Shown here: piece after piece, positions 17,044 to 31,729 of the stretch
Layout: each line of letters begins with the position of its first letter
Position numbering within the stretch: the first letter of the stretch is position 1
NCBI GenBank assembly: GCA_017522185.1
Contig: JAFWZZ010000011.1
Location: forward strand, 1-32,624
Direction: 5' to 3'
Source: Bacillota bacterium
Lineage (GTDB): Bacteria > Bacillota > Clostridia > Peptostreptococcales > Anaerovoracaceae
DNA length: 32,624 nucleotides
Translations under genes and position numbers: made by a program
Notes under the pieces: generated by a model
The model's database searches: none
The model's input: the letters and a program-made list of their open reading frames with translations, nothing else
Told to the model about the DNA's origin: nothing

Positions 17044-18045
17044 TCAGACTTCAAATAATACGATTTTAATCGCGAAGTCTGTCTCGTCCTGTTTCGTTTC
17101 TATGTAGCCGCCGTAGTGTTTCGCGATGGTCTCCATGCTGGTAATGCCTATCTTTCTGCTCTCCACCACTTTCGGCGATTTGTCTTTTTTGTTGGATTGT
17201 CTAATGACGATGCGTCTCTTTTCCGTGTCGATAGTCAGGCTGACCGGCGCATCTGGGTCTGCGTATTTCAAAACGTTAGAGGACAGGTTGTCAAATATCC
17301 TGCGCAGTTCCTCCACGTCAAACTGCCCGCCGAATGTCGGACACCGGCTGATGTCGGCACTGCAGTCGAACTTTTCTTCCAGGCCTTCTTCCCATTCCTC
17401 CGTCAGCTGGGCCATCAGCAGCCTGCCGTCAGTAATCTCGCTCAACCTGCTGCCGCCGTCGAGGAGCCGCTCTGTCAGCGCCTTAATCTGTTCCGCTTTC
17501 GACTTTGTCAGTTCCAAAAAATCGTCCAGCTCTTCTTTGCTCAGATTTTCTCTGCCCTGCATATACTCCGCGTAAGACATGATAGCCGTCAGCGGCGTGC
17601 GGATATCGTGGGACAGATTCCGTTCCACCGCCTTCAGCTGGCGCTCTGTTTCTGCCAGGTAGTTGATGCTCTCTGCCAGCTCCGTCAGCTCGTTGTTCCC
17701 CTCCAGAGGGATTTCGTACTGCATCCGGTGGGTGCGAAGCGCCTCGATGCCATCTGTCAGCTTCCGGATATAGGCGAGTTTTCGTCCTACAAAGACCAGG
17801 AATAAGGTGATGAACAGAATCACCGATCCCAGGATGCTCAGATGCAGAACCATTTCGTCCAGCATGATGGACTGCAGGTCGTCGAGGCCGATCTGATTGG
17901 CCTCACAATATTCATATGCCAGAGTTCCCGCTGTTGAGTGCAAAAAGAAATAAAATATGGCGGAAACCACCGTGTCTGCCGCAATGAGAATCAGCAGCTC
18001 CCGGTTCAGTTTCGATCGTCTGGCGGTTCTTTCTTTAGTCGACAT
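17044..18045 (-). CDS. HisKA sensor histidine kinase
   Basis: This 333-aa membrane kinase is the partner of the OmpR-type regulator whose gene it overlaps by 11 nt. Transmembrane segments are at about 16-36 and 67-87, enclosing a short 30-residue outer loop. A HAMP-like stretch follows, then the H box NLSHDIRTPLTAIMSY with H146, and the N box DNLSSNVLKYA with N257. A clear DxGxG G1 box is not visible; the segment is short and Lys-rich (SNKKDKSPKVV) and is followed by IGITSMETIAKHYGG. The ATG at 18045 has AAAGGG close upstream; an upstream in-frame extension lies inside the regulator gene and looks like noise. The small outer loop suggests sensing in or at the membrane. Confidence 0.9.
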   Translation of the reverse strand: MSTKERTARRSKLNRELLILIAADTVVSAIFYFFLHSTAGTLAYEYCEANQIGLDDLQSIMLDEMVLHLSILGSVILFITLFLVFVGRKLAYIRKLTDGIEALRTHRMQYEIPLEGNNELTELAESINYLAETERQLKAVERNLSHDIRTPLTAIMSYAEYMQGRENLSKEELDDFLELTKSKAEQIKALTERLLDGGSRLSEITDGRLLMAQLTEEWEEGLEEKFDCSADISRCPTFGGQFDVEELRRIFDNLSSNVLKYADPDAPVSLTIDTEKRRIVIRQSNKKDKSPKVVESRKIGITSMETIAKHYGGYIETKQDETDFAIKIVLFEV

Positions 18046-18748
18046 AGTAACCCTTTCCCCATGCGGTCTTGATATATTTCGGGCTGCGGGAATTGTCTCC
18101 CAGCTTCTTGCGGATATTCTTGATGTGTACCATGATGGCACCGTCGCCAACCGGTTCCTCCTCCCAAATGCTCAGATAGATATTATCCAGGGAGTAAATC
18201 TTCTTTCTGTGGGTAGCCAGCAGCTCCAGAATCTTAAACTCAGTGTAGGTCAGGTTGATGGTTTCTCCGCCTCTCAGGATGGACTGGCTCTCCAGATCCA
18301 GGACCACATCCTGCAACTGGAGATGGTTTGGGTTTGCCGCCGGTTTTTCCGGTTCCGTCCTGGTCTGTTTCCCCTTGCCAGACCTTCTCAGGATTGCCTT
18401 CACGCGCATCAAAAGCTCCATGTTGGAAAAAGGCTTTACGATATAGTCGTCTGCACCCACGGAAAAGCCCATGACCTTGTCGGACTCTCCGGAATAAGCG
18501 GTCAGAAAGATCAAAGGCGCCTCTTCATATTTCGCCCTGATTTCCGATCCTGCCATGAAGCCCGTCATCTCCGGCATGTTCACATCCAGCAGATACAGAT
18601 CTACCGTTTCGTCTGCAAGTTCCACGGCCTGTCTGCCGTTTTCCGCCTGTATCACCGTGTAGCCTTCCCCCTTCAGCAGGAGGTTCAGGATATCACGGAT
18701 TTCCTTCTCGTCGTCTGCAATCAGAATGCAGTGTTTGTCGTCTCTCAT
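18035..18748 (-). CDS. OmpR/PhoB-family response regulator
   Basis: The 237-aa protein has a receiver domain (about 7-120) with acidic D12-D13, phospho-acceptor D55 in LLDVNMP, T83 and K105 in DYIVKPF. A winged-helix DNA-binding domain (about 143-236) follows, with LTYTEFKILELLATH and KYIKTAWGKGYYV. The start at 18748 has AGGGGA 7 nt upstream; further upstream in-frame codons lie in the leader and before the prolyl-tRNA editing gene stop. It follows that gene by 19 nt and overlaps its cognate kinase. Target genes are not evident from the window. Confidence 0.93.
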   Translation of the reverse strand: MRDDKHCILIADDEKEIRDILNLLLKGEGYTVIQAENGRQAVELADETVDLYLLDVNMPEMTGFMAGSEIRAKYEEAPLIFLTAYSGESDKVMGFSVGADDYIVKPFSNMELLMRVKAILRRSGKGKQTRTEPEKPAANPNHLQLQDVVLDLESQSILRGGETINLTYTEFKILELLATHRKKIYSLDNIYLSIWEEEPVGDGAIMVHIKNIRKKLGDNSRSPKYIKTAWGKGYYVD

Positions 18749-18767
18749 GATGTTCCCCTTTGTTTTT

Positions 18768-19256
18768 CTATAGTTCCAGAATCCGGTATTCGTATCCCAG
18801 GGCGTCAAAGAACCGGTACATGTCATCCATGGTAATGAACGCCGTTGCCGTGTTCACGTTAGGATGGAAGGTGATGTATCTCTCGTCCAGAATGCCTTGG
18901 TCCAGGATGATGTTCACGTCGTGTTCCTCGTTATTGAGGAGGCCAAAGATGGATACGGTTCCTGCAGGCAGGCCCAGCTTGTGCATCAGTTTTTCCCCGC
19001 TGCAGAAGTGCAGGCCCTTGGTCGGAATCAGCTCCTCCAGGGCCTTCATGTCGATGGGTTTTGCACCGTCTGTTACCACCAGGTAATAGGCCTTGCTCTT
19101 CTTGTTGCAGAGGAACAGGGTCTTGGTTTTCACGCCCTCTTCACCCTCGATATACCGGTCAGCTTCCTCCGTGGTCATGGCCGGCGGATGCTCGATGATG
19201 CGGTATGTTATATTCATTTCGTCGAGTTTTTCTTTTACAAAATGATATTGATTCAT
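18768..19256 (-). CDS. YbaK/ProX-type prolyl-tRNA editing domain protein
   Basis: The free-standing trans-editing domain hydrolyses mischarged aminoacyl-tRNA-Pro (Ala or Cys, depending on subfamily). Family features are the N-terminal helix, HPPAMTTEEADRY, KTLFLCNKKSKAYYLVVTDG with the conserved Lys, GTVSIFGLLNN and the end FHPNVNTATAFITMDDMYRFF. The length of 162 aa is typical of ProX/PrdX. The start at 19256 is preferred because GGGAG lies 6 nt before it; the ATG two codons upstream abuts that site. A strong promoter lies just upstream, so this is the first gene of the operon that runs to ribokinase. Confidence 0.9.
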   Translation of the reverse strand: MNQYHFVKEKLDEMNITYRIIEHPPAMTTEEADRYIEGEEGVKTKTLFLCNKKSKAYYLVVTDGAKPIDMKALEELIPTKGLHFCSGEKLMHKLGLPAGTVSIFGLLNNEEHDVNIILDQGILDERYITFHPNVNTATAFITMDDMYRFFDALGYEYRILEL

Positions 19257-19380: not shown

Positions 19381-22300
19381 TTATCTTGTCTTTACAGTCT
19401 TCACTTTGGACCATGCGGAGTAGTATTTTACACCTTTCACAGTCTTGTAAGCTCTAACCTTTACGTAATAAGTCTTCTTCGCCTTCAGTTTCTTGACTTT
19501 TACCGAAGCCTGGGAATACTTCTTCACTCTGGTAGTTTTCTTGTTCTTTGTGAACTTCTTATTGGTTGCTGTCAGCACTTCATAGCCTGTAACCTGTGCC
19601 TTCTTGCCTTTGGCCCATTTTGCAGTGATGGCTTTCTTTGCAGTTACAGGTTTCTTAATGATTGGGGCCTTTGGTACAATCTTAAAGGTCGCAGTCTTCG
19701 TTCCGGAGTATTTTCCTTTGAACTTGACAGTTACAGTTGCCTTGCCGATATTCTTATTGTTCTTGTAAGTAACCTTGTAGTTTGCAGATGAAATGATCCT
19801 GCCATTGGTATCTTTCGCGGTTACCACCGGTTTCCGGACTTTGCCTGTGTACACAACAGTTTTTGCAACGGTTATGGATTTCACTTTTGCAGTCACAGTT
19901 CCTGTGTTTGGCGTACCTGGAGCAGGTGTTATCGTTCCACCTGTAGATCCGCTGCCCTTGATTTCAAAGCTCAGGGTCTTGGTGCCGCTGTAGTTGCCCG
20001 TCATCGTAACAGTCACGTTGTATGTACCCGAATTCACACGTCCAGACGCGTAGGAAACCGTATAATCGGTGCCTTCTTTTAAGACTGCGCCAGCAGAATC
20101 TTTTACCGTCACAGCCGGTGTGCAGACATTACCGTTATAGGTATATGCGGTTTCAGAGAGGCTGAATGTCTTCGGCATACGAATCGTCGTTGTGGATTTG
20201 ACGGTTTTGCAGTCTTTGCATCTGGTCACAATCTCCCCGCCTATGCTCAAAGATGCCTTGCGAATTACAACCTGTTCATATGCGTGGTCTGTCAGCTTCG
20301 GAATGACCGTTTGTGGCTGAAGGGTTGTCTGGCAACCGCTGCATTTCAGAAGATCTGTCTTGCCATCTTTCTTACAGGTTGCTGCGGTTCCTTTTATAGC
20401 AACATAAGGGGTATGTTTACCTGTTGCAGGAATTACTGTCTGCTTCACGGTAACAGTGCCGCATTCCTTGCACTTCTTGCCGTCAGTCAGGCCGGTGGTC
20501 TTGCAGGTTGCTGCCTTGCCTTTGATGACTTCTTCTTCCTTATGGGGCAGCTTAGGAATGGCCTTAGCCTTTTCTGTATAATAACAGCCGGAACATTTCA
20601 ACTCTGGTGTCAGTCCCCAGCTGCTGCAGGTAGGATCCTCTCCTTCACGCAGTACCTGCATATCATGGGGCAATACAGGGATTTCTTCCAGGCCTGCTAT
20701 TACCTTTTTACAGTCATAGCACTTCGTTCCTGCCGTACGCCCTGGCGTGATACAGGTTGGCTCCTCACGCTTGTAATCCAGTAGGGCTGAATGGTTATAT
20801 CTGTTGGTGTCGCGGTATTCTTTCTTTCCGCACAGGCAGTATCTGCGTTCCTTCACTACATCATAGCAGTTTCCCGGGAACCAGGTCTTCCAGTTTCTCC
20901 AGCTGCAGGTATGGTTCCCTTGTTCCTGATCTACGACAGCTTTCTTGCTGACGGTTACGCTAATCTTAATCGCAGTTTTTTGATTTTCTGAGAACTTCAG
21001 TTCCATAGTGCCGGAGCCTTCAGTCTGGCCGGTCAGCACCAGGTTACCCTTATCGTCCATGGACGCTTTGGCGATGATTTTGCCGCCAGCATCCTTTGCA
21101 TCGGTATAAGATGTCGCTTTCAGTCTAACCGGACCGTTGACCTGCAGGTTTTTATAGTCTTCCAAAGTCGTATTGTTAGACACGGTGGAAATGGTCTTGC
21201 TTTCACCAAGATGAACGGTGGTTGTCTTTAAGGCGTTTACATCCAGATATTCCGTCTTTGTCTTCACGGTAAAGCAATCGGATTTGATATTCTTCTTAAA
21301 GGCGTTGTGATCAACAGAAGTATCTTCTTCAGCAGTGCTCTTCGCCGTTACCAGATCGTCATCAAAGAGCTGTACCCAGTAGGTAATGCCGTCCGCCTCA
21401 AAATGGCCAACGCCCATGCGGGTGTGATTTGGGTCGATCATATTCGCATAGTGATCTTTAGATTCAATCCAGCCCTGCACGGCTTCTTCTGCATCCAAGG
21501 ATGCGCAGGCAATGTTTTCTGTGGTTCCATTATCAATTCTGCCTGAATAAACGCCTTCTAATGCTGTATAGAATTCGCTGCCGTCAGGTCTTATATGGTC
21601 AAAGTTCAGAGATAATTCTGCAGCTCTCTGCATCGCTGCCTTGGTCAGTTCATCATCCAGAACCAGCGTACTGAGGGTATCATCTTTGGCTTTACGAGCC
21701 TGGTTGGTCAGCTTGACAACTTCGTCTACAGCATTATAGTCCTGCTGGCCGCCGACAGAAACATCCCATGTTTCTCCCGCTGAAACAGATACTTCCTGCT
21801 GGGTGTCACTGACACCGCCGAAGTGGTGTTTCAATGTGTTGTCGATAACGCCGGATAACGGTTTCCCGATTTCGGCATAACGAACCACATATGCCATGTC
21901 TGTCGTTCCTTCAACATATTCCTTGTTCTCCAGCCCTGTCTCGATAACAACTTCTTCTTCCGTAATCACCAGTACCAGTGGATAGTTATAAAAACTTTGA
22001 TCTTTAAAGACTCCGCTGTTATAAAGCATACTTAAATAGGCCTGAAACACATACCATCCATTGGGATGAAACTCAATTTTGCTGGCTGTGTCCTCGCTGA
22101 TGTAGTTATTTTTAAAAAAATTCAAGTCAACACGCGGCAGGCTTGGTCCACCTGCTTCGTATGCCACAACGTTTACTCTTGGATCGTCCAGCCAGCCTGT
22201 GGCATTGAGCTTGTCAAAGTCTGCTCTGTCTACACCACATCGCGTGCAGAAGAAAACCAGAACAGTAACACCGCCGGAAGGATGATTGGTATCATCATAT

Positions 22301-22545
22301 TTTACAGCAGTATTAAAGACTTTTTCATCTTTCCAGTCTCTGATTGGGGTCTTATTCCAAAAGGAAGTCAGATAGTCTATGACCGGTTTCTTTGAATAAT
22401 TCATATTCACGCCAGGCTGATAGACGTATTCATCTGCTGACGCAGTCTGTGTAGCTTGTGTCGTTTCTGCCATGACGGATGCCGGCATTACGCAGGTAAG
22501 TACCAGGCACAAAATCAGCGTCAGGGCTGTTAGTTTCTTTTTCAA
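19381..22545 (-). CDS. Secreted thioredoxin-like/CAP/Cys-rich-repeat/Ig-like/FN3-like surface protein
   Basis: A signal peptide ends near VMA (about 26-29). Residues about 85-205 look like a thioredoxin-like domain: a hydrophobic strand VTVLVFF then CTRC. A CAP (SCP/PR-1, YkwD-like) domain spans about 272-400 with DHIRPDG, ENIA, WIESKDH and MGVGHF, keeping the two His and the first Glu. A beta domain (about 440-535) and a Cys-rich array (about 548-790) with units like KAATCKTTGLTDGKKCKECG follow. Two Ig-like modules (about 798-866, 887-961) and a Lys-rich FN3-like module (962-1057) end it. No LPXTG is seen. Residue numbers count from an ATG at 22554; that ATG touches the GGAG. The TTG at 22545 is 9 nt from it, the exact offset of the ATG in the paralog at 26288, so I favour TTG. 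Confidence 0.88.
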   Translation of the reverse strand: MKKKLTALTLILCLVLTCVMPASVMAETTQATQTASADEYVYQPGVNMNYSKKPVIDYLTSFWNKTPIRDWKDEKVFNTAVKYDDTNHPSGGVTVLVFFCTRCGVDRADFDKLNATGWLDDPRVNVVAYEAGGPSLPRVDLNFFKNNYISEDTASKIEFHPNGWYVFQAYLSMLYNSGVFKDQSFYNYPLVLVITEEEVVIETGLENKEYVEGTTDMAYVVRYAEIGKPLSGVIDNTLKHHFGGVSDTQQEVSVSAGETWDVSVGGQQDYNAVDEVVKLTNQARKAKDDTLSTLVLDDELTKAAMQRAAELSLNFDHIRPDGSEFYTALEGVYSGRIDNGTTENIACASLDAEEAVQGWIESKDHYANMIDPNHTRMGVGHFEADGITYWVQLFDDDLVTAKSTAEEDTSVDHNAFKKNIKSDCFTVKTKTEYLDVNALKTTTVHLGESKTISTVSNNTTLEDYKNLQVNGPVRLKATSYTDAKDAGGKIIAKASMDDKGNLVLTGQTEGSGTMELKFSENQKTAIKISVTVSKKAVVDQEQGNHTCSWRNWKTWFPGNCYDVVKERRYCLCGKKEYRDTNRYNHSALLDYKREEPTCITPGRTAGTKCYDCKKVIAGLEEIPVLPHDMQVLREGEDPTCSSWGLTPELKCSGCYYTEKAKAIPKLPHKEEEVIKGKAATCKTTGLTDGKKCKECGTVTVKQTVIPATGKHTPYVAIKGTAATCKKDGKTDLLKCSGCQTTLQPQTVIPKLTDHAYEQVVIRKASLSIGGEIVTRCKDCKTVKSTTTIRMPKTFSLSETAYTYNGNVCTPAVTVKDSAGAVLKEGTDYTVSYASGRVNSGTYNVTVTMTGNYSGTKTLSFEIKGSGSTGGTITPAPGTPNTGTVTAKVKSITVAKTVVYTGKVRKPVVTAKDTNGRIISSANYKVTYKNNKNIGKATVTVKFKGKYSGTKTATFKIVPKAPIIKKPVTAKKAITAKWAKGKKAQVTGYEVLTATNKKFTKNKKTTRVKKYSQASVKVKKLKAKKTYYVKVRAYKTVKGVKYYSAWSKVKTVKTR

Positions 22546-22597
22546 AATGTTCATCTCCTTCTATGTCTATATAAAAATACACACTTCTACAGATAAC

Positions 22598-22664
22598 ATT
22601 TTAGCACAAAGATTTTTATCCGAATGCCGATGGCGTGAATGGTCGTTTTCAGGGTGCGAAATGC
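22598..22664 (-). promoter_or_regulatory. LytTR-type operator and promoter of the first CAP protein gene
   Basis: On the minus strand GCATTTCGC (22656-22664) and ACCATTCAC (22635-22643) start 21 bp apart. A TAAAAT -10 with TGC before it (22598-22603) begins 31 bp after the second repeat, and no good -35 exists. The same geometry occurs at 26353-26419 and 29601-29667. LytTR regulators bind such paired 9-bp repeats with 12-bp spacers; assignment to the regulator at 29738 is inference. Confidence 0.65.
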
Positions 22665-22672
22665 AGATATGC

Positions 22673-22703
22673 AAAACGGGCGGGCCATGAGTGGCCCCGC
22701 CCG
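22673..22703 (-). terminator. Terminator after the Cys-rich repeat protein gene
   Basis: GC-rich stem 22677-22687 pairs with 22692-22703 (11 pairs, one bulged C, 4-nt loop), followed on the minus strand by TTTTGC. It resembles the terminators at 19321 and 26434, including the flanking GCGTGATGCAATATG shared with 19351 onward. Confidence 0.8.
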
Positions 22704-22733
22704 CGTGATGCAATATGAACGAAATGTCGTTAT

Positions 22734-24263
22734 TTATTTTACTTTTACTTTCTTCACTGTAGACCAGTCGGAGTAAATCTTTACCCATCTGCCTACAACT
22801 TTCACGCTCTTATATGCTCTTACTTTGACATAGTACGTCTTCTTGGACTGTAGCTTCTTGATCTTTACGGATGTCTTCTTGTAACCGTTTACCTTTACGG
22901 TCTTACCGCCGAAGAAGTTCTTATTTGTCGAATACATGACTTCGTACCCGCTTACCTGGGCTTTCTTACCTTTCACCCATTTTGCGGTCAGCGTCTTCTT
23001 TGCAGAAACCGGTTTTTTGATGGTTGGTGTCTTTGGGACAACCTGGAACTTGGCCGTTGCCGTTCCGAAGTAATTGCCCTTGAACTTAACATCCACGTAG
23101 GCATTACCGATGGCCTTGTTCTTGCCATACTTCAAGGTGTAATCTCTTCCCTGCTTCAGCACCTTGCCTTTGGAATCCTTAACGGTTACTTTTGGTTTTA
23201 CATACTTGCCCGTATAGGCAACCTTTTCTTTGACGGTGATGGCGCCGATTTTCGGAATCTTCGTCTCGTCATAAGGCAGGTGACAGACACTGCAGATTTT
23301 GGTAATCGTACCATCCAGGGTCAGCATTGCCGGCACAGTGGAAACATACCCCTCTGCATGCGGCAGTCTGCTTAGGATCGTCTGTTCCGTCAGGAATTTA
23401 CCGCAGTCAGCACATTTCTCATAGGCACTAAGTCCATAGTCTGCACAGGTTGCCGGTGTACCCGGATCGATGATTACATTGTGCGGAAGCGGGCCCTCAC
23501 CGATTTCACCACAGACACCACAGACTGCAGAGGTCACACAGGTTTGTCCGAACCATTTGTGACCAAGTGCACTTCCTTCTGTTGCCTGACAATTTTTGCA
23601 GGTTTTCGGCGTTGTACAGGTTGCTGCTTTATAGGCGTGAGGCTTTAAGCCCCCTTCTGTCGCGCCACAAAGCGTGCAGGTCTTCGGTGCAGCACAGGTT
23701 GCGTCTTTCCACTTGTGCACGACAGTGCCTTCTGTTTCACCGCATTTCTTACATTTCTTCGGCGTAGTGCAGGTTGCTTCAGCAAAGTCGTGTTTGCCGT
23801 TTTTCACAGTTGCAGTTGCTTCACAAAGGGAACATTTTCCCTTTACGCAATTCACCCGTACATAACTGTGCTCCTTTGAGAGAGGACCATATTCAAAAGT
23901 TTCTGTTCCGACTGCTGTACAGTTTTCACAAGTATAATAGTATGTCGCCGGTGCAATACAGGTTGCATCAGATGCCTTATGTTTTAAAGCTCCGTTACTT
24001 GTAAACTGGTGTCCCGGTGCATCGTCAGCCTGTCCTCTGACATAACTTACACAGGTATCACAGAAAGCCTCGTACGTAGTTCCTACATCACATTTCGCAC
24101 TTTCATTTTTTGTGATGCTATTGGCCCTTATCGCTTCTGTATGTCCGCATTCCCACGCAACAGCATCTGCCGTCACTGCATACACAGGATTTGCCGTCCC
24201 AACTACTGCCATGGTGCATACCATGGCAAAAGCCGCGGCTAATGTTATCAGTTTTCTTTTCAT
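22734..24263 (-). CDS. Secreted Cys-rich-repeat/Ig-like/FN3-like protein
   Basis: A signal peptide (about 1-29, ending VYA) is followed by a Cys-rich array (about 37-330). Its middle part has units of about 22 residues of the form ATCTTPKTCKNCQATEG with a conserved His between units (KHDFAEATC, VHKWKDATC, PHAYKAATC, GHKWFGQTC). An Ig-like module (about 338-410) and a Lys-rich FN3-like module (about 411-509) follow and closely resemble those of the CAP proteins. There is no enzyme domain, so it is probably a structural or binding surface protein. Paired CxxC motifs suggest zinc binding or disulfides. It has AAGGAG 8 nt before ATG and lies 24 nt after the next gene upstream, in the same operon. 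Confidence 0.85.
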   Translation of the reverse strand: MKRKLITLAAAFAMVCTMAVVGTANPVYAVTADAVAWECGHTEAIRANSITKNESAKCDVGTTYEAFCDTCVSYVRGQADDAPGHQFTSNGALKHKASDATCIAPATYYYTCENCTAVGTETFEYGPLSKEHSYVRVNCVKGKCSLCEATATVKNGKHDFAEATCTTPKKCKKCGETEGTVVHKWKDATCAAPKTCTLCGATEGGLKPHAYKAATCTTPKTCKNCQATEGSALGHKWFGQTCVTSAVCGVCGEIGEGPLPHNVIIDPGTPATCADYGLSAYEKCADCGKFLTEQTILSRLPHAEGYVSTVPAMLTLDGTITKICSVCHLPYDETKIPKIGAITVKEKVAYTGKYVKPKVTVKDSKGKVLKQGRDYTLKYGKNKAIGNAYVDVKFKGNYFGTATAKFQVVPKTPTIKKPVSAKKTLTAKWVKGKKAQVSGYEVMYSTNKNFFGGKTVKVNGYKKTSVKIKKLQSKKTYYVKVRAYKSVKVVGRWVKIYSDWSTVKKVKVK

Positions 24264-24287
24264 TGTTCAAGCTCCTTCCTCTGGAGT

Positions 24288-26288
24288 CTATTTGACCTTC
24301 ACGGTTTTCACCTTACTCCAACTGGAGTAAACGTTGGTGCTCTGCGGCCAGTAGCCCCTGATTTTCACGTAATAGGTTTTCTTAGCCTTGAGACCCTTGA
24401 ATGTCCACTGCAGTTTGCTTGGGGAAGAAATGGTGAAGGTCTTTACGTTCTTCGTGAACTTCTTGTTGGTTGCTACCATCACCTCATAGCCTCTGATCTT
24501 GCCTTTCTTTGGCTTTGTCCATTTTGCGGTAATCGCCTTCTTGCCGCCCTTCACGGACTTCAGAGTTGGTGTGTAAACCTTGATATTGGTTGTCTTAAAT
24601 GTTCTTACAGGTGACCAGTCACCATATAACAGCTTATTACCGTTTGCCGTTTCAATGGTGGAACCAAGACGGATTCTTACATAATATGTTGTGTTCTTCT
24701 TCAGATTCTTGATGGTAACAGAGCCCTTCTTTTTGCCTTTTATCGTCTTGGCATTGGAGAAGTCCTTTTTGGTTGCATACTGTACCTGCTCAGTGGCTTT
24801 CGCATTAACAATAATTCTGTTATTTTCTGCAGTGCCGCTGACACTTGCACGTTTTGGCAGTTTCTTGAGGGTAATCTCTTTCGGAGTGGCAGAAGATCCC
24901 TTTACACCAACGGTTACCTTCAGCTCCTTTAGATAAGCCCCCGATGATACCTTGTCAAACCATTTGTTGCCAATGGTTGCGGTATTCTTGGAGAAGATGC
25001 CTTTTGCGAGAATCTTGTCTCCGGAATAAATCTTCACTTCAGCAGATGCCCCGATTGGATCCCATCCGATGACATATTCATTATCTTTATTGATATCGTA
25101 AACCTTCAAATTTTCCAGAGTGTACTGGATATCCTGTTTCTGGATATACAGGGTTCTGCCGCTGTACTGTACCGCTGCCCACTGATCATCGGTTCCTTCT
25201 GGCAGTGCATGCAGTCTGGTGTAGATGGATACTTCTACAGGGCTTGCAGAAGCGGTATCCTTTGCTTCATACAGCTTCGCCCAGTTGCCGGACTTCGGAT
25301 AAACCTTGATTGGGGAGGAACCCGCCGGTGTCACCGGATTGCTGCCCTTGTAGTTGATATACGCAGAATTCATGTAGCCGTAGTAATATTTGTGACCCAT
25401 GTAGTTGGTATCGTTACTGCCGCAGAACAGCACTTTGTAATAAGTTGCGGTGTCGCCCTCTGCCTGGGATGGGATTGGCGTTGGGTCTACAACGTACATT
25501 TCTGAATTTACAGTATATGCGTAGCAGTTACCGGATCCTGTGTCCCCTGGTTTTGGGAACACGCGCAGGTTATATGCAGTAACCTGGCCGATGCCGCTGT
25601 AGTATCTGTTTGGTGCGACTTCTTCTTCCGCATAAAGGTTCAGATATACTTTGTCTCTTTCTACTCTGTAGAAACCTGCCTGATGGGTTCTCAGCAACAT
25701 GTAGGCATAGCACTGTCTTGCATTGATGCCACTGTATCCCTTCAGACCGTCACTCCAGATGGTAACCCATTCGTCATCATAGGCTACAACCTGATACTTG
25801 GTACCTTCTCTGCAGATAAATTCCTGTGCACTTGCGTTGCTTGGCCAGCCCACGCGGGAATTGTCCGCATAACCCTGTCCGGAAATTGGGGAATTATACA
25901 GATTGTACAAGTGCTGCATGTTATCTGTGGAGATCCATCTTGGGTCAATCCACTGACCCTGAATATAGTATTCATACTTATCCCCTTCGGAATCCACAAC
26001 AGACTTGATGTTCACGAAAGCACCTAATCCGTCTTTACTTTCGCGGTCCATCATTTGGTTTTCGCCAATCAGCAGGGCTTCCCCTAAGACCTGTACGTTT
26101 GGCACCATGTCCTTAATCTTCAGGTTGGTGCCCTGACCAGACTCATACTTATGCTGTGCCTGCGGCGTATGGGTCTGCGTAATCTTCGCTTCTGCCTTTG
26201 TTGTGGCCAGACCAAGACCTGCGGCTACGACAAAGATGCACAAAAGCGATACCGTCAGCCATTTAGAAACCGTTTTTCCTTTTGTCAT
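24288..26288 (-). CDS. Secreted protein with tandem FN3-like C-terminal modules
   Basis: A signal peptide (about 1-34, ending AEA) is followed by about 330 residues rich in Tyr, Trp and Asn that I do not recognise. It has features of secreted beta-rich domains (YYIQGQWIDPRWI, YQVVAYDDEWVTIWSDG, KVYPKSGNWAKLYEAKDT) and an SH3-like flavour near residues 350-400. Two FN3-like modules (about 475-568 and 569-666) end it; the last is closely related to the C-termini of the other surface proteins. It has no Cys-rich array and no CAP domain. The ATG at 26288 has AAGGAG 9 nt upstream; an ATG 11 codons up lies before the ribosome binding site. It is first in a two-gene operon under the LytTR-type promoter at 26353-26419. 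Confidence 0.82.
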   Translation of the reverse strand: MTKGKTVSKWLTVSLLCIFVVAAGLGLATTKAEAKITQTHTPQAQHKYESGQGTNLKIKDMVPNVQVLGEALLIGENQMMDRESKDGLGAFVNIKSVVDSEGDKYEYYIQGQWIDPRWISTDNMQHLYNLYNSPISGQGYADNSRVGWPSNASAQEFICREGTKYQVVAYDDEWVTIWSDGLKGYSGINARQCYAYMLLRTHQAGFYRVERDKVYLNLYAEEEVAPNRYYSGIGQVTAYNLRVFPKPGDTGSGNCYAYTVNSEMYVVDPTPIPSQAEGDTATYYKVLFCGSNDTNYMGHKYYYGYMNSAYINYKGSNPVTPAGSSPIKVYPKSGNWAKLYEAKDTASASPVEVSIYTRLHALPEGTDDQWAAVQYSGRTLYIQKQDIQYTLENLKVYDINKDNEYVIGWDPIGASAEVKIYSGDKILAKGIFSKNTATIGNKWFDKVSSGAYLKELKVTVGVKGSSATPKEITLKKLPKRASVSGTAENNRIIVNAKATEQVQYATKKDFSNAKTIKGKKKGSVTIKNLKKNTTYYVRIRLGSTIETANGNKLLYGDWSPVRTFKTTNIKVYTPTLKSVKGGKKAITAKWTKPKKGKIRGYEVMVATNKKFTKNVKTFTISSPSKLQWTFKGLKAKKTYYVKIRGYWPQSTNVYSSWSKVKTVKVK

Positions 26289-26334
26289 TTCGTTCATCTC
26301 CTTCAAAATATTTTCACACATTTATAAAAATGGG

Positions 26335-26420
26335 TAATCTTTCACAACTATCAGTATACTCTTATTTTTAGCTGAGAACTGTTTGCGGTGTGAACGGTCG
26401 TTTTTTCGGTGTGAAATGCA
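26335..26420. repeat. 86-bp duplicated promoter segment, copy 1
   Basis: Matches 29583-29668 in 83 of 86 positions. It covers the LytTR-type repeats, the -10 region and the early leader of the gene at 26288. See the copy at 29583. Confidence 0.9.
26353..26419 (-). promoter_or_regulatory. LytTR-type operator and promoter of the tandem-FN3 protein operon
   Basis: On the minus strand GCATTTCAC (26411-26419) and ACCGTTCAC (26390-26398) start 21 bp apart. A TATACT -10 (26353-26358) lies 31 bp after the second repeat, with no good -35. ACCGTTCAC fits the published LytTR consensus [TA][AC][CA]GTTN[AG][TG] at 8 of 9 positions. Confidence 0.7.
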
Positions 26421-26433
26421 AAGAATTCCAATA

Positions 26434-26462
26434 GGAAACGGGCGGGTCTTATGACCCGCCCG
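26434..26462 (-). terminator. Terminator after the second CAP protein gene
   Basis: Perfect 10-bp GC-rich stem (26439-26448 with 26453-26462, 4-nt loop) followed on the minus strand by TTTCCTATT. The T-run is modest. It lies 27 nt past the stop at 26489. Confidence 0.75.
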
Positions 26463-26488
26463 CATCGCAAAATTGCTTTTTTATTCGG

Positions 26489-29400
26489 TTATTTTACCTT
26501 TACCTGTTTCACTGCAGACCAGTTGGAGTAGTATTTTACTTTCCCTACTGTCTTGTATGCTCTTACCTTTACATAGTAAGTCTTCTTGGCCTTTAGCTTT
26601 GTCACCTTGGCAGAAGTTGCTTTTGCTTTCTTTACAGTTACTGTCTTCTTGCCTACGGTGAACTTCTTGTTAGTTGCAACCATGACTTCGTAGCCAGTAA
26701 CTTTCTTAGCTACCTTGTTCCATTTTACCGTTACGGCCTTCTTTGCTGCTACCGGTTTCTTGATAGTTGGCGCTTTAGGAATAATCTTGAAAGTTACAGC
26801 CTTGGATCCTGAATAGCTTCCTCTGAACTTTACAGTTGCAGTCGCCTTTCCAACCTTCTTATTATTCTTATAGATTACAGTATAGCTGGCAGCGCTGACG
26901 GTCTTCCCCTTGGTGTCCTTCACAGTTACTTTCGGTTTCAATGCCTTACCCGTATAGACTACACTCTTTGCAATAGAAACTGATTTGATTCCGGCAACGG
27001 AAGTGACCGGAGTCTGGGTTGTGCCGGAAATCTTTGGAATGACTTTCTGTTTTACTGTAACAACACCGCAGACCGTACACTGTTTACCCTGTGTTAAGTC
27101 AGTGGATGTTTTCGTTGCAGCTTTTGCTGGAAGCGTCTTTTCCTTATGACCTAGTGCAGAAAGTTTTCTGATTTGGGTTGTGATATTACAGTACTTACAT
27201 TTCTCGTGAGACATATAACCAGCCTCTGTACAAGTCGCTGCTTTGGCTGGAACCATCACGAAATCATGATTCAATTTACTGATTGTCTTTTGTTTTACTG
27301 TCACAACGCCACATCGTGTACACTTCTTTCCATCAGACGTGCCTGCGGAATTGCAGGTAGCAGCTTTCCCCGGAATGATTTCTTCCTGATGACCCAATGC
27401 AGGGATAACCGTTCCTGCATCTGCCAGTTTGCCACAGCGGGTACAGTTTTTAGCATTGGTATATCCATCTTCTGTGCAAGTCGCCGCTTTATCTTCGACA
27501 CTTGCTCCTGGCTCGTGTCCCAGCGCAGGGATTGTTATACTTTGTGACGATGTTTTTGCACCACAGACGGAACACTTTTTGATTTTGGAGCCCGCCGTTG
27601 TACAAGTAGCCTCTTTTTCTACCACGTCAACTTCTGTATGTGACGTTTTCGGAATGGTTTTACCACCCTCTAGGTCTCCACAGTCCTTGCACTGATACAA
27701 GGCAGTGATACCCGTAGCCTTACAGGTTGCAGGGCGTTCATCTCTAAAGAATTCATATTCGTGGGTTGTAGTTCTCGGAATTTCCTCACGTGGAATCAGA
27801 ATCTTAAAACAACGAGTACAGTGAGTCTCTTCTGTCCAGCCAACCTGCACGCATGTCGGTGCCTCTGCTGGACGCACCGCTTCCACATGACGGATTGGTA
27901 TATCTTCAAATTGGAGTTCGCCGCAGATACAATATTTTCGATTCAGTCCCGTACCGTAACAGGAAGGAGCCCTCCACTCTCTCCATTCACTACTCCATAC
28001 ATGCTCATGTTTCGGAGGAATTTTGTACTCTACGTTTACCGTGAAAGGCGTCTTCTGCTCCTTTGCAAAGGTGATATTGAAACTACTTCTTCCCTCAGAT
28101 ACTGCATCTAAGATAAATCGTTGGTTCTCTTCGTCCAGCCGTATTTCCCCAATGTTGGACATGCCGCTGGTATCACATCCGTGTATTCGAATTGGCGTCC
28201 GCACATACTTTGATACTGCATTCATGTCACCCGTTGAGGTGATCTGTTCAAGCTCTGTTTCATGGTAAAAAGAGATCGCATGCTCACCGCTGTTTTGGAT
28301 AAACACATTTTTCGGTGCATAGATGTTCCAATGATATCCCAAAGAGCTGACCGGAACATAGTGGGTAACACTGCCAGTCTTTTCTAACGGCACCGACGTT
28401 ACTTCCTCCCAATATCGCACTTCGAAGATTTGCACCCAATAAATTTGGTCGCCGACTTGGGCATGACCCACACCCATTTTCACATTACCAGCATTTGTGA
28501 TATTATCGCGGTGCCCTTCAGAGTTCATCCAGCTATCCATGGCCTGCACAGGAGAAGTCTGGCCAGAGGCAATATTCTCACTATAATGCGCAGCGTTGTG
28601 ATACTTATCGATGTTTACGTCATCATCGTAGCCCATTTCCTCAAGAATCGTAGCGAAGATGGTTCCATTGGGTCGCCAATGATTATAATACACTGCCAGT
28701 TCCGCAGCACGCTTCATTGCAACCTCAGTCAAATCCGCATCCAATACAACCTCATTACGATTATAAGTTTGTACACGGGTCGAATTCACAAGTTCTGCCA
28801 CCTCGTATGCATAGTTATAATTTTGTGTCACCTTGACATCCAAGGTCCAGATTTCATCTGCAGCAATGTCGACTTTTTCATTGAGGCCTAAATCTGGAAA
28901 TAACCATGTTAATGTCTCAGTGATGATTTTCGCATCTGTTACATTCAAATCAACGAAACGGCCAACTCGTCTCAAGTCTTTTCCCCCATCTTCCATTACC
29001 ACTTCTTCTTCGGTAATGATGCCTACAGCCGGCGAATACTGCTTTTGGGGTCCCACGTAGCCATCAATGAAATGACCCCCTGCGTTACCTGCGTTAGCAT
29101 ACCACTTTACCTTATCTACATAATCAGAAGCGAAATTCTCCTGTAGACGCATCACTTCAAAAACTTCACAACTCCCCATCATGTACACGTTAATACGCTC
29201 ATCATCCAGCCATCCCTCACTTCCCAGTGTTTGTAACAGCTGGTTACTTCGTGGACAGTTATTCATGAAATTGATAAATACCGCCGCCCCATTGCGAGGA
29301 ACTTCATAGCGGAATACTTCATACTTGTCTGTAGCCATCTCTGTCGCCTTAAGGGCAAAGGTCAGACTTTGGTTACTGTTTTCAATCCACCAACAATCCT

Positions 29401-29542
29401 GAAGATTCTTTCGATCTTCATAGACATAGCCTTCGTTGGTATGTCTTTTCCCTTCTGCGGCCATGACACCTGTCGGTATAAGAACGATTACCATGACAAT
29501 CATCATGAGACCGAGAAGTCTCTTGTATATTGATTTCATCAT
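26489..29542 (-). CDS. Secreted thioredoxin-like/CAP/Cys-rich-repeat/Ig-like/FN3-like surface protein (paralog)
   Basis: Same domain order as the protein at 19381: signal peptide (to about 28), thioredoxin-like region (about 80-190), CAP domain (about 240-375 with NHWRPNG, SENIA, WMNSEGH, MGVGH), beta domain, Cys-rich array (about 510-840), one Ig-like and one FN3-like module. In the thioredoxin-like region the CTRC of the paralog reads MNNC, so only the second Cys remains. One array unit, AKAATKTSTDLTQGKQCTVCG, has lost its first Cys. The start is ATG 29542 or 29539, since GGAGG lies 4 or 7 nt before them; an ATG 51 nt upstream has no such site. It is divergent from the LytTR regulator gene. 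Confidence 0.87.
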   Translation of the reverse strand: MMKSIYKRLLGLMMIVMVIVLIPTGVMAAEGKRHTNEGYVYEDRKNLQDCWWIENSNQSLTFALKATEMATDKYEVFRYEVPRNGAAVFINFMNNCPRSNQLLQTLGSEGWLDDERINVYMMGSCEVFEVMRLQENFASDYVDKVKWYANAGNAGGHFIDGYVGPQKQYSPAVGIITEEEVVMEDGGKDLRRVGRFVDLNVTDAKIITETLTWLFPDLGLNEKVDIAADEIWTLDVKVTQNYNYAYEVAELVNSTRVQTYNRNEVVLDADLTEVAMKRAAELAVYYNHWRPNGTIFATILEEMGYDDDVNIDKYHNAAHYSENIASGQTSPVQAMDSWMNSEGHRDNITNAGNVKMGVGHAQVGDQIYWVQIFEVRYWEEVTSVPLEKTGSVTHYVPVSSLGYHWNIYAPKNVFIQNSGEHAISFYHETELEQITSTGDMNAVSKYVRTPIRIHGCDTSGMSNIGEIRLDEENQRFILDAVSEGRSSFNITFAKEQKTPFTVNVEYKIPPKHEHVWSSEWREWRAPSCYGTGLNRKYCICGELQFEDIPIRHVEAVRPAEAPTCVQVGWTEETHCTRCFKILIPREEIPRTTTHEYEFFRDERPATCKATGITALYQCKDCGDLEGGKTIPKTSHTEVDVVEKEATCTTAGSKIKKCSVCGAKTSSQSITIPALGHEPGASVEDKAATCTEDGYTNAKNCTRCGKLADAGTVIPALGHQEEIIPGKAATCNSAGTSDGKKCTRCGVVTVKQKTISKLNHDFVMVPAKAATCTEAGYMSHEKCKYCNITTQIRKLSALGHKEKTLPAKAATKTSTDLTQGKQCTVCGVVTVKQKVIPKISGTTQTPVTSVAGIKSVSIAKSVVYTGKALKPKVTVKDTKGKTVSAASYTVIYKNNKKVGKATATVKFRGSYSGSKAVTFKIIPKAPTIKKPVAAKKAVTVKWNKVAKKVTGYEVMVATNKKFTVGKKTVTVKKAKATSAKVTKLKAKKTYYVKVRAYKTVGKVKYYSNWSAVKQVKVK

Positions 29543-29582
29543 AAAACCTCCCTTGCGTTGTCGATTATCTTTAAAAAATTGA

Positions 29583-29668
29583 TAATCTTTCACAACTATC
29601 AGTATACTCTTACTATTAGCTGAGAACAGTTTGCGGTGTGAACGGTCGTTTTTTCGGTGTGAAATGCA
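29583..29668. repeat. 86-bp duplicated promoter segment, copy 2
   Basis: Near-copy of 26335-26420 with 3 mismatches, two between the -10 and the repeats and one just beside the downstream repeat. The direct repeats and -10 are identical in both copies. Confidence 0.9.
29601..29667 (-). promoter_or_regulatory. LytTR-type operator and promoter of the second CAP protein gene
   Basis: On the minus strand GCATTTCAC (29659-29667) and ACCGTTCAC (29638-29646) start 21 bp apart. TATACT (29601-29606) follows 31 bp after the second repeat. The upstream repeat ends 13 bp before the -35 of the divergent regulator promoter, so binding here may also affect the regulator's own expression. Confidence 0.7.
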
Positions 29669-29680
29669 GGAAGCTACACA

Positions 29681-29709
29681 TTGAAAAGGCTCCGAGGCGG
29701 GAGTATAAT
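29681..29709 (+). promoter_or_regulatory. Sigma-A promoter of the LytTR two-component operon
   Basis: TTGAAA (29681-29686) and a perfect TATAAT (29704-29709) with 17 nt between. Transcription would start near 29716, which excludes the in-frame ATGs at 29681 and 29708 as gene starts. Confidence 0.85.
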
Positions 29710-29737: not shown

Positions 29738-30457
29738 ATGCTGAAGATTGCCATTTGTGATGACAACCTGCGCTACCGCCAGGAGATGGAAGCAAACGTA
29801 AAAGCCTGGGCACAGGAACAGAATATGGAGGTAGACGTTGCCGTTTTTGACCACGGCGATGCGCTGCTGGCTGCCTGTCACGCCCAACAGCCTGACATCA
29901 TTCTGCTGGATATTATGATGCCTCTCCTTAGCGGCATGGACGCTGCACATGAAATCAGAAAAGTAAATAAAGTGGTGAAAATCGTATTCTTTACTTCCGC
30001 ACCAGAATTTGCAATAGCGTCCTACGATGTAAAAGCCTCCGGCTACCTTTTGAAACCGCTTCAAGTGGAAAAATTCCGCAATGTCATGAACGACTGCATC
30101 GCTGATATACAGGTGGAGCCAGACCATCTCATCACCAGAACCAGCCATGGTTATCAAAAGGTATTTCTCCACCATATCGACTGCATAGAAGCCCAGAACA
30201 AAAGAGTTCTCATCCATCTGGATGACCATAGCACCCTTGAAGCGCTGGACACCTTTACCCACTTCACGGAAACGCTGCCTGCAGAAAAAGGATTTTTCAA
30301 GTGTCATCGCAGTTATATGGTGCATATGCCGAATATCGATCAGTTTACGACGACGGAAATCGTTACCAAGTCCGGGATCCTTGTTCCGATTGCAAGAGGC
30401 TGTGCAAAAGATTTTAAGGATGCCTATTTCCATTACATGTTCGAGAAAGGAGAGTAG
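29738..30457 (+). CDS. LytTR-family response regulator
   Basis: A 239-aa regulator of the AgrA/VirR type. The receiver domain has D8-D9, phospho-acceptor D58 in LLDIMMPLLSG and K106 in YLLKPL. The LytTR DNA-binding domain (about 132-233) has YIEAQNKR-like DCIEAQNKRVLIHL, the FFKCHRSYMVHMPNI stretch and the IARGCAKDFKDAYF end. It has AGGAGA 6 nt before ATG. It is the best candidate to bind the 21-bp-period repeats in front of the three secreted-protein promoters, one of which is in its own upstream region. Its kinase partner starts 3 nt downstream. Confidence 0.95.
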   Translation: MLKIAICDDNLRYRQEMEANVKAWAQEQNMEVDVAVFDHGDALLAACHAQQPDIILLDIMMPLLSGMDAAHEIRKVNKVVKIVFFTSAPEFAIASYDVKASGYLLKPLQVEKFRNVMNDCIADIQVEPDHLITRTSHGYQKVFLHHIDCIEAQNKRVLIHLDDHSTLEALDTFTHFTETLPAEKGFFKCHRSYMVHMPNIDQFTTTEIVTKSGILVPIARGCAKDFKDAYFHYMFEKGE

Positions 30458-30460
30458 GAA

Positions 30461-31729
30461 ATGTTCGAATTGCTTTTAGAACTATTCCGCCATGGAATGA
30501 CGATGCTCTTTGGAACTTTCCTTTCTGCTGTCTTTCTACGGGTGGAAATGAACCGGCGGAACGTTTTGATTCTATCGTTTTTTTCGGCGTTGGCACTGGG
30601 GCTGCAGGGGATACTTTTTGTGCTGCGGGACGTGACCTTCCTCACCATGTATTATCCGTTGATTGCCCATTTGCCGCTGGCTCTGCTCTTCGTCCTGGCT
30701 TTCAGGCAGAAGCTGATACATGTGGTCTTTGCCATTACAACGGCTTATCTGTGCTGTCAGATTGCAAACTGGGCGTCTATGGTCCCTACATCCTTCAGTG
30801 GTGATACCATGGCAGTCGATTTAACATACACGATTGTTTTAACCGCTACCTTTGCGTTTATCTGCAAATACGCAGCCGGCTCCTTTGTCAACCTGTACAG
30901 TAAACCGGTTGGCAGTTTTCTGACCTTTGCCATCGTGCCGGGCTTCTATTACGTGTTCGACTATCTGTCTACCGTGTATTCGGATCTTTTGTACAGTCAC
31001 AATATGCTGGTGGTGGAATTCACGCCGTTTCTGCTTTGCATGTGTTACATGTTTTTCTGCACGGTCTATTTCCGCCAATACGAAGAGAAGCTGGAGGTGG
31101 AACAGCATAATCAGTTAATGCAGATGCAGCAAAGCCGGGCCGAAAAGGAAATGAAGGCGATCCAGCACAGTGAGAAAACCATTGCGCTACTCCGCCACGA
31201 TATGCGCCATTTCCTCGGCACCGTATCGGAATACATCGAAACCAATCAGCTGGACAAGGCGAAGGATTATATCCGGGACATCATCGAAGTCACCGACAGC
31301 ACCAGGAAAAAAAAATACTGTGCCAACGACACAGTAAACATGATTCTGTCCTATTACGAGGAGACGCTGGAGTCCTTTTCGGTGCAGTTCACTTACGACC
31401 TGCAGTTACCAACCAGGGTGAAACTCTCCGATGTGGACTTGACTTCCATCCTGTCTAACGGCCTGGAGAACGCGATTCACGCCGTCTCCGCTCTGCCGGA
31501 AGAGCGTCGGCAGATTCACATGAGCCTTTCCGAAAAAGGCGGAAAGATTCTGCTTTCCATCAAAAACCCTTACGGACAGACACCGAAATTCGTAGGCGAC
31601 ATGCCGGTTTCCAAGGAAAGCGGCCACGGTTACGGCACCCAGAGCATTCGCTACACGGTGGAAAAACTGGGTGGCAACTGTCAGTTCGCACTGGTTGAAG
31701 GCCAGTTTGTGATGCGGGTGATTGTGTAA
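30461..31729 (+). CDS. AgrC/VirS-type sensor histidine kinase (GHKL)
   Basis: Six to seven transmembrane segments fill residues 1-205, typical of the HPK10 group. A short coiled linker follows, then the phospho-acceptor H246 in LRHDMRHFLGTVSEYIE, the N box GLENAIHA (N337), and a GHKL ATPase end with SIKNPYG and GHGYGTQSI. At 422 aa it has the usual size. Relatives detect peptides, often cyclic, but no AgrB/AgrD-like genes are present in the window, so the signal is unknown. It is translationally close to the regulator (3 nt) and ends before a good terminator. Confidence 0.94.
   Translation: MFELLLELFRHGMTMLFGTFLSAVFLRVEMNRRNVLILSFFSALALGLQGILFVLRDVTFLTMYYPLIAHLPLALLFVLAFRQKLIHVVFAITTAYLCCQIANWASMVPTSFSGDTMAVDLTYTIVLTATFAFICKYAAGSFVNLYSKPVGSFLTFAIVPGFYYVFDYLSTVYSDLLYSHNMLVVEFTPFLLCMCYMFFCTVYFRQYEEKLEVEQHNQLMQMQQSRAEKEMKAIQHSEKTIALLRHDMRHFLGTVSEYIETNQLDKAKDYIRDIIEVTDSTRKKKYCANDTVNMILSYYEETLESFSVQFTYDLQLPTRVKLSDVDLTSILSNGLENAIHAVSALPEERRQIHMSLSEKGGKILLSIKNPYGQTPKFVGDMPVSKESGHGYGTQSIRYTVEKLGGNCQFALVEGQFVMRVIV

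What the first reader, a model, noticed from the sequence alone, without database searches (positions are those of the whole stretch)
22598..29667. Three promoters of secreted-protein genes share one LytTR-like operator with fixed geometry
Seen: in front of the genes at 22545, 26288 and 29542, a GCATTTCnC repeat and an ACCnTTCAC repeat start exactly 21 bp apart, and a TATACT or TAAAAT -10 lies exactly 31 bp past the second repeat in all three. The third copy differs in many other bases, so the spacing is kept by selection. No good -35 is present, as expected for activator-dependent promoters. Known: LytTR regulators bind two 9-bp direct repeats with a 12-bp spacer. Inferred: the regulator at 29738 activates all three units.
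Basis: partly seen in the sequence, partly recalled or inferred. Interest (0 to 1): 0.75.

Follow-up and report, generated by a model that had tools for sequence, protein, structure and literature searches.

The report
Conserved switch for surface-protein genes
A bacterium, probably a Firmicute, appears to turn on a small set of secreted-protein genes through one paired DNA tag placed at a fixed distance from each promoter and probably read by the regulator encoded next door; the design is of a known kind, and what is added is a specific gene set that can be tested.

Summary
Three tandem operators (22635-22664, 26390-26419, 29638-29667, minus strand) have repeats 21 bp apart and a -10 exactly 31 bp further on; two of the three are near-copies. 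The new targets are two paralogues of the 26288 gene and an operon-like run with two SipW-related signal peptidases. Of 24 loci with relatives of the neighbouring LytTR regulator, 20 carry a tandem pair at period 20-22 upstream, 16 of them with the best -10 at +31/32; shuffles averaged 0.54 and 0.02 (loci and matrix not chosen blind). Best reading: a two-component activator regulon for secreted proteins. Geometry is that of known LytTR activators (BrsR, VirR), so it is a new member of a known kind. Binding, activation and signal are untested; a second LytTR regulator lies near one site, and one genome has target and operator without a close regulator.

The parts
22635..22664 (-). LytTR-type operator 1: repeat 1 at 22656-22664 (GCATTTCGC), repeat 2 at 22635-22643 (ACCATTCAC), period 21
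22598..22603 (-). -10 box TAAAAT (preceded by TGC, extended -10), 31 bp past repeat 2
19381..22545 (-). target gene 1: 1054-aa protein with signal-peptide-like start (by eye), CAP domain, fn3 slightly below cut-off (TTG start; an ATG at 22554 is possible)
26390..26419 (-). operator 2: repeat 1 at 26411-26419, repeat 2 at 26390-26398
26353..26358 (-). -10 box TATACT, 31 bp past repeat 2
24288..26288 (-). target gene 2: 666-aa secreted-type fn3 protein, about 32% identical over its length to the C28 and C34 targets
22734..24263 (-). 509-aa secreted-type fn3 protein, 24 bp after target gene 2, probably the same operon
   Evidence: and spacing
29638..29667 (-). operator 3: repeat 1 at 29659-29667, repeat 2 at 29638-29646; in the divergent intergenic region shared with the regulator
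29601..29606 (-). -10 box TATACT, 31 bp past repeat 2
26489..29542 (-). target gene 3: 1017-aa secreted-type CAP + fn3 protein, paralogue of target 1 (33% over full length)
29681..29709 (+). ordinary sigma-70-like promoter of the regulator, TTGAAA-17-TATAAT (11 of 12)
29738..30457 (+). response regulator, receiver + LytTR DNA-binding domain, 239 aa
30461..31729 (+). sensor kinase, 422 aa: GHKL ATPase over cut-off, SpoOB-type helical segment just under its cut-off, hydrophobic N-terminal half by eye

Best explanation
The repeats are the operator of a LytTR-type response regulator. The kinase at 30461-31729 senses an unknown signal and phosphorylates the regulator at 29738-30457. The regulator dimer binds the two half-sites on one face of the DNA, two helical turns apart, and holds RNA polymerase at a -10 box 31 bp downstream in promoters that lack a good -35. 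It so switches on a regulon of six promoters: two paralogous CAP-domain secreted-type proteins, three paralogous secreted-type proteins of a second family (fn3 detected in one; one has a fn3 gene behind it), and an operon-like run with two SipW-related signal peptidases and secreted-type products. The regulator has its own ordinary promoter. Shown: the sites, their geometry, their restriction to six promoters in this draft, and the same layout upstream of many relatives of the regulator. Inferred: binding, activation, phosphorylation, and a role at the cell surface or in adhesion.
For: Out-of-sample genome hits; six sites only by refined pattern (control 0; the pattern was refined on these six) and by profile. 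Between the five independent promoters (10 pairs) the 30-bp operator is 70-83% identical, the next 30 bp 17-40%, although the distance to the -10 is kept. All six sites precede secreted-type genes or the signal-peptidase run. Tandem pair upstream of 20 of 24 relatives, best -10 at +31/32 in 16; shuffle means 0.54 and 0.02; the mean score over periods 14-29 peaks at 21 (21.8; next 19.5 at 16); 0 of 7 other LytTR upstream regions reach the threshold. Closest relative (57%, L076) has GCATTTCAC/ACATTTCGC between regulator and a secreted-type protein. The only other genome of 383 with a homologue of the 26288 protein at E up to 1e-25 has the operator before the one copy whose upstream DNA is held. 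Regulator promoter with -35 and -10. Geometry as in published BrsR, VirR and SilA sites.
Against: No binding or expression data. A paralogous LytTR regulator (32% identical) lies about 4.5 kb from the C28 site and could bind some sites. G216 has operator and target genes but no close relative of the regulator in a 99%-complete draft. The C27 site has its -10 at +33; L076 and L089 have it at +32. A G044 hit with 2 mismatches and a -10-like hexamer at +32 sits at a contig end in a genome whose best regulator is 29% identical. One search was not blind: the matrix was set after sites had been seen, L089 was put in the test set after its site was seen, and three loci of 29-31% identity (L085, L087, L088) were used as controls; counted as relatives they make it 20 of 27. 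Four of the 24 lack the pair at threshold (L106, L108, L110, L111), and in four with a pair the best -10 is elsewhere (L082, L113, L118, L119). Two of the 7 controls have their best -10 at +31 too (one tied).
Confidence: 0.82

Rival explanations
1. The operators are LytTR sites, but the paralogous regulator on contig C28, or both regulators together, bind them.
For: C28 regulator and kinase lie about 4.5 kb from the C28 site; six LytTR domains in the genome; G216 has the site without a close relative of the window regulator.
Against: The region upstream of the C28 regulator has no tandem pair (score 18.4), while those of the window regulator and most of its relatives do; in the tree the C28 regulator falls outside the group of 24 rows that holds the operator carriers (support 87/82, root for drawing only, long branch).
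Confidence: 0.15
2. The sites are leftovers of gene and promoter duplication and have no regulatory role.
For: Operators 2 and 3 agree in 82 of 85 bases; the targets other than the signal-peptidase run fall largely in two paralogue families.
Against: Operator kept at 70-83% while the following 30 bp are near random identity with the distance kept; the signal-peptidase gene is unrelated to the other targets (no match); same layout in other genera before unrelated genes.
Confidence: 0.03
3. The tandem repeats bind an unrelated activator or repressor that happens to share targets with the two-component system.
For: No direct test; repeat 1 fits the general LytTR consensus (recalled) less well than repeat 2.
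Against: Direct repeats of 9 bp with 12-bp spacer upstream of a promoter are the LytTR layout; presence follows this regulator family in 20 of 24 loci.
Confidence: 0.05

Closest known systems
VirSR / VirR boxes of Clostridium perfringens
   Same: Response regulator with a membrane kinase; two imperfect direct repeats upstream of promoters, at the same relative position and on the same helical face in all direct targets; many targets secreted (passages of PMC2838878)
   Different: Half-site letters differ (VirR consensus recalled, not compared by tool); there the boxes stand upstream of a -35, here no good -35 is seen; different target genes
Streptococcus mutans LytTR regulatory systems (HdrRM, BrsRM)
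   Same: 9-bp direct repeats, 12-bp spacer; the BrsR promoter has the same 31 bp between repeat 2 and -10 (passages and tables of PMC6193735)
   Different: Those regulators pair with an inhibitory membrane protein and autoregulate; here a receiver-bearing regulator is followed by a kinase and has an ordinary promoter
SilA of Group A Streptococcus
   Same: LytTR response regulator; direct repeats whose exact spacing is needed for activation; targets sought genome-wide by the site (passages of PMC2766830)
   Different: Autoinducer-peptide system, 10-bp repeats with 11-bp spacer, bacteriocin-related neighbours
Staphylococcus agr (AgrA)
   Same: DNA-binding domain aligns weakly with AgrA structures (E about 0.008)
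   Different: No AgrB match in the genome

Membership tests
LytTR-family response regulators | Receiver plus LytTR DNA-binding domain over curated cut-offs | tested here: met
   PF00072 66.7 bits (cut-off 30.2), PF04397 46.2 bits (cut-off 22.6)
LytTR-type operators | Two 9-bp direct repeats separated by about 12 bp upstream of a promoter | tested here: met
   definition from passages
LytTR-type operators | Match to the general half-site consensus | not tested
   By eye ACCGTTCAC fits 8 of 9 positions of the consensus as recalled, repeat 1 fewer; no call tested it
LytTR-type operators | Bound by the LytTR protein; activation lost when repeats are mutated | not testable with these tools
   needs gel shift and reporter assays
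agr quorum sensing | AgrB processing protein (and peptide gene, not searched) | tested here: not met
   no PF04647 match at E up to 0.001 in the 99.1%-complete genome; of 14 control genomes one rang, under the cut-off
LytTR regulatory systems (regulator + membrane inhibitor) | LytTR regulator paired with an inhibitory membrane protein, operon autoregulated by repeats (passages; absence of a receiver is recalled) | tested here: not met
   receiver and GHKL kinase present; -35/-10 promoter for the regulator

The most novel reading that the evidence does not exclude
This is one branch of a widespread clostridial two-component family whose upstream promoter keeps its geometry (period about 21, -10 at +31/32) while half-site letters and the regulated, mostly envelope-related gene are exchanged. 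Half-site letters shift together with DNA-contact residues of the regulator: position 9 is T in both repeats for all 8 site-bearing regulators with a GR pair and Q/K at the AgrA-R233-like place, and for 1 of the 12 others in the tree. It would be a natural series for decoding LytTR specificity, and in this species it would couple a SipW-like secretion operon to other secreted proteins in one surface programme.
Probability: 0.55. Interest if true: 0.62.

Novelty: new member of a known kind. Interest (0 to 1): 0.5.

Why it matters
Control of the large secreted proteins of such bacteria is rarely known. Here sequence alone gives a compact, genome-wide regulon with a candidate regulator, testable with one purified protein. 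The layout shared by many relatives of the regulator offers a simple way to look for such regulons in other genomes, and a set of matched regulator-operator pairs for working out how LytTR domains choose their DNA.

Tried and rejected
Chance and coding-region scatter: rejected. Quorum sensing of the agr type: no AgrB in the genome (control weak). Solved relatives of the first SipW-operon secreted protein: one meaningless match, E 0.99. RNA of a known family in L079, L115 or the window: none at gathering score. Small transcript in Blautia L079: the strong hairpin with a T-run faces the other strand, so not claimed. tRNA genes in the window: none. Literature: no paper on this regulon seen in the listings (open-licence PMC only; up to 20 rows shown per search).

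Rows dropped before counts. The 24 loci are the window; L076, L078-L080; L081-L083, L086, L089; L106-L119. Not used: L077 (no upstream DNA), L084, L090, L091 and own L043. The 7 controls were L038, L041, L042, L044 (own) and L085, L087, L088. L089 was added after its site had been seen, and the upstream regions of most loci had been printed before the matrix was chosen. L089 was left out of the tree. In one search site 29667 was left out of the pair comparison as a near-copy. In one search at most 7 first-look candidates per genome were scored, at most 3.
Full report
What was claimed.

The observation. It is exact. One search finds the pattern without mismatch at 22635-22664, 26390-26419 and 29638-29667 on the minus strand; 0.27 matches with up to 3 mismatches are expected in shuffles of the window. 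One search places TAAAAT, TATACT and TATACT exactly 31 bp past repeat 2. One search finds no useful -35 (best 1, 1 and 2 of 6). One caution: operators 2 and 3 agree in 82 of 85 bases (my count on the strings), so they count once.

Whole-genome test. The window is contig C3 of a 2,120,492-bp draft in 35 contigs, 99.1% complete. Of the 22 hits outside the window sites three stand out: C28:50086, C34:102381 and C27:88188. Each has CACC after repeat 1 and a start codon 101-126 bp after the first base of the site; two have the -10 exactly at +31, the third TAAGAT at +33 after TGG. Their best -35 matches are 3, 4 and 3 of 6. None of the other 19 has the CACC or a fitting -10 at +31, although two have a start-codon call downstream. 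A pattern refined on these six finds them with no mismatch, nothing else with up to 3 mismatches, and 0 in the control. A sequence profile built from five of them plus L076 and L089 finds the same six at E 6e-7 to 6e-6 and nothing else up to E 10, with the caveat that 150 of 321 first-look candidates were scored.

The targets. 'Secreted-type' means a signal-peptide-like start seen by eye. The C28 and C34 genes are paralogues of the 26288 gene over most of their length, at 30-33% identity; fn3 is detected in the 26288 protein, no Pfam family in the other two. The 22545 and 29542 genes are paralogues of each other at 33% with CAP domains over cut-off; fn3 is over cut-off in the second and just under it in the first. 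The C27 site precedes an operon-like run with two proteins that pass the cut-off of the signal peptidase I model TIGR02228 (100.6 and 90.0 bits, cut-off 51.85) and score on the SipW model under its cut-off (97.5 and 80.3, cut-off 190), one protein with an LPXTG anchor over cut-off, three proteins with similar leaders (AKYT-like motif, by eye; likeness to TasA-type cargo is recalled and was not confirmed: no Pfam or NCBIfam match for the three, and no real solved-structure match for the one tried), and a 1521-aa protein. Among five independent promoters (10 pairs) the 30-bp operator is 70-83% identical and the next 30 bp 17-40%, so there length, not letters, is kept.

The regulator. Receiver and LytTR domains, followed by a GHKL kinase. 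Its own promoter is TTGAAA-17-TATAAT, 11 of 12. The genome has six LytTR domains and no AgrB match.

Relatives. A scan of species genomes gave five relatives. L076 (57%) has GCATTTCAC/ACATTTCGC between the regulator and a divergent secreted-type protein, -10 at +32. L078, L079 (Blautia) and L080 have a period-20 variant upstream of the kinase-regulator genes with a -10 at +31 (in L080 tied with +29); L080 has a second such site before another secreted-type gene. In 393 genomes of the order, 16 including the own one have a regulator at E up to 1e-38. I scored up to 330 bp upstream of 24 loci (listed in Tried and rejected) with one generic half-site matrix. At threshold 21.9, 20 of 24 have a pair (100 shuffles: mean 0.54, most 3), all 20 with period 20-22, and in 16 the best -10 lies at +31 or +32 (shuffles: mean 0.02, most 1). 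The mean score over periods 14-29 peaks at 21 (21.8; next 19.5 at 16). Seven other LytTR upstream regions gave 0 of 7, though two of them have their best -10 at +31, one tied. This was not blind: the matrix was chosen after seeing sites, one locus (L089) entered after its site was seen, and three controls are 29-31% identical to the regulator; counted as relatives they give 20 of 27. The four misses are L106, L108, L110 and L111; by eye L106 has an imperfect pair and the other three seem to have coding sequence there. In L082, L113, L118 and L119 the pair is present but the best -10 is elsewhere.

Genes under these operators in relatives. Pfam finds LemA (L082, L086), Big_2 (L080, L081), ricin-type lectin (L080, L113, L116), WG repeats (L113, L116), a BspA-type repeat (L078), a B-repeat domain (L076), polysaccharide deacetylase (L107) and an M26 N-terminal region (L109); L112 has a lone receiver protein. 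By eye L083 and L117 are LemA-like and L106 is signal-peptidase-like. L079, L089, L114, L115, L118 and L119 gave no frame of 60 codons with a ribosome site within 420 bp.

Co-variation. Half-sites fall into types: TTC(A/G)C (window, L076, L078-L080, L115), TTC(A/G)G (L081, L109, L112, L119) and TTC(A/G)T or TTTAT (L082, L083, L086, L107, L113, L114, L116-L118). All 8 site-bearing regulators with a GR pair near the place of AgrA H169, and Q or K at the place aligned with R233, have T at position 9 of both repeats; of the other 12 in the tree with a called site (L106 called by hand) only L107 has. The contact role of H169, N201 and R233 is from passages of PMC12482169; the placing is by my alignment, with AgrA itself aligned only partly. 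The eight form one clade, so this may be a single event.

A further test. Among 383 genomes one other, G216, has homologues of the 26288 protein at E up to 1e-25 (42% and 36%). One copy has readable upstream DNA, and there stands ACCATTCGC-N12-ACCATTCAC followed at +31 by TAAATT, a weak -10. But G216 shows no close relative of the regulator (best 26%, residues 1-120). Either its regulator is missing from the draft, whose other copy starts 19 bp from a contig end, or another protein serves there. The own-type pattern with up to 2 mismatches is found in 2 of 61 relatives including the own genome; the other is a single G044 hit at a contig end. Profile R1 finds sites in 3 of 61: the own genome, G003 (the L089 site, which helped build the profile) and a weak hit in G024, E 0.06.

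What it works like and what it is. It works like VirR, BrsR and SilA: direct repeats at fixed phase upstream of an activator-dependent promoter. Literature seen: passages of PMC2838878, PMC6193735, PMC2766830, PMC4227749 and PMC12482169; other papers only as search listings. By domain tests the regulator belongs to the LytTR response regulators. It is not agr by the AgrB test and not a regulator-inhibitor pair. I file it as a new member of a known kind, with a clean genome-wide footprint and a wide comparative one.

Noticed in passing
window 26335-26419 and 29583-29667: The promoters of the 26288 and 29542 genes agree in 82 of 85 bases although the proteins differ outside a shared C-terminal part, as after a recent promoter copy or gene conversion.
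   Followed up: partly
L040 6992-17251 (contig C27): Operon-like run with two SipW-related signal peptidases, three proteins with similar leaders, an LPXTG protein and a 1521-aa protein, with transposase-like frames (by eye) just upstream of the operator.
   Followed up: partly
L038 10572-18001 (contig C28): A second LytTR regulator and GHKL kinase followed by a very large secreted-type protein (cut by the stretch end), about 4.5 kb from one of the six operators; no operator pair upstream of that regulator.
   Followed up: partly
L079 7190-7540 (Blautia sp. MSJ-9): A well-formed operator with -10 at +31 upstream of the kinase gene points into DNA without a fitting protein gene near by; it may drive a short RNA or a very small peptide.
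   Followed up: partly
L089 1-2006 (G003, same genus): Operator kept next to an interrupted regulator reading frame and split kinase frames; repeat 2 ends in T instead of C.
   Followed up: no
L082, L083, L086, L117: In several relatives the gene under the operator is a LemA-family protein (L082 and L086 by Pfam; L083 and L117 alike by eye).
   Followed up: partly
window 17044-18826: An OmpR-type regulator and kinase with VanR/VanS-like scores well below the curated cut-offs.
   Followed up: no
window 19381-29542: Three of the four secreted-type proteins carry rows of short Cys-x-x-Cys repeats before the fn3 region (by eye); no Pfam family was reported for them.
   Followed up: no
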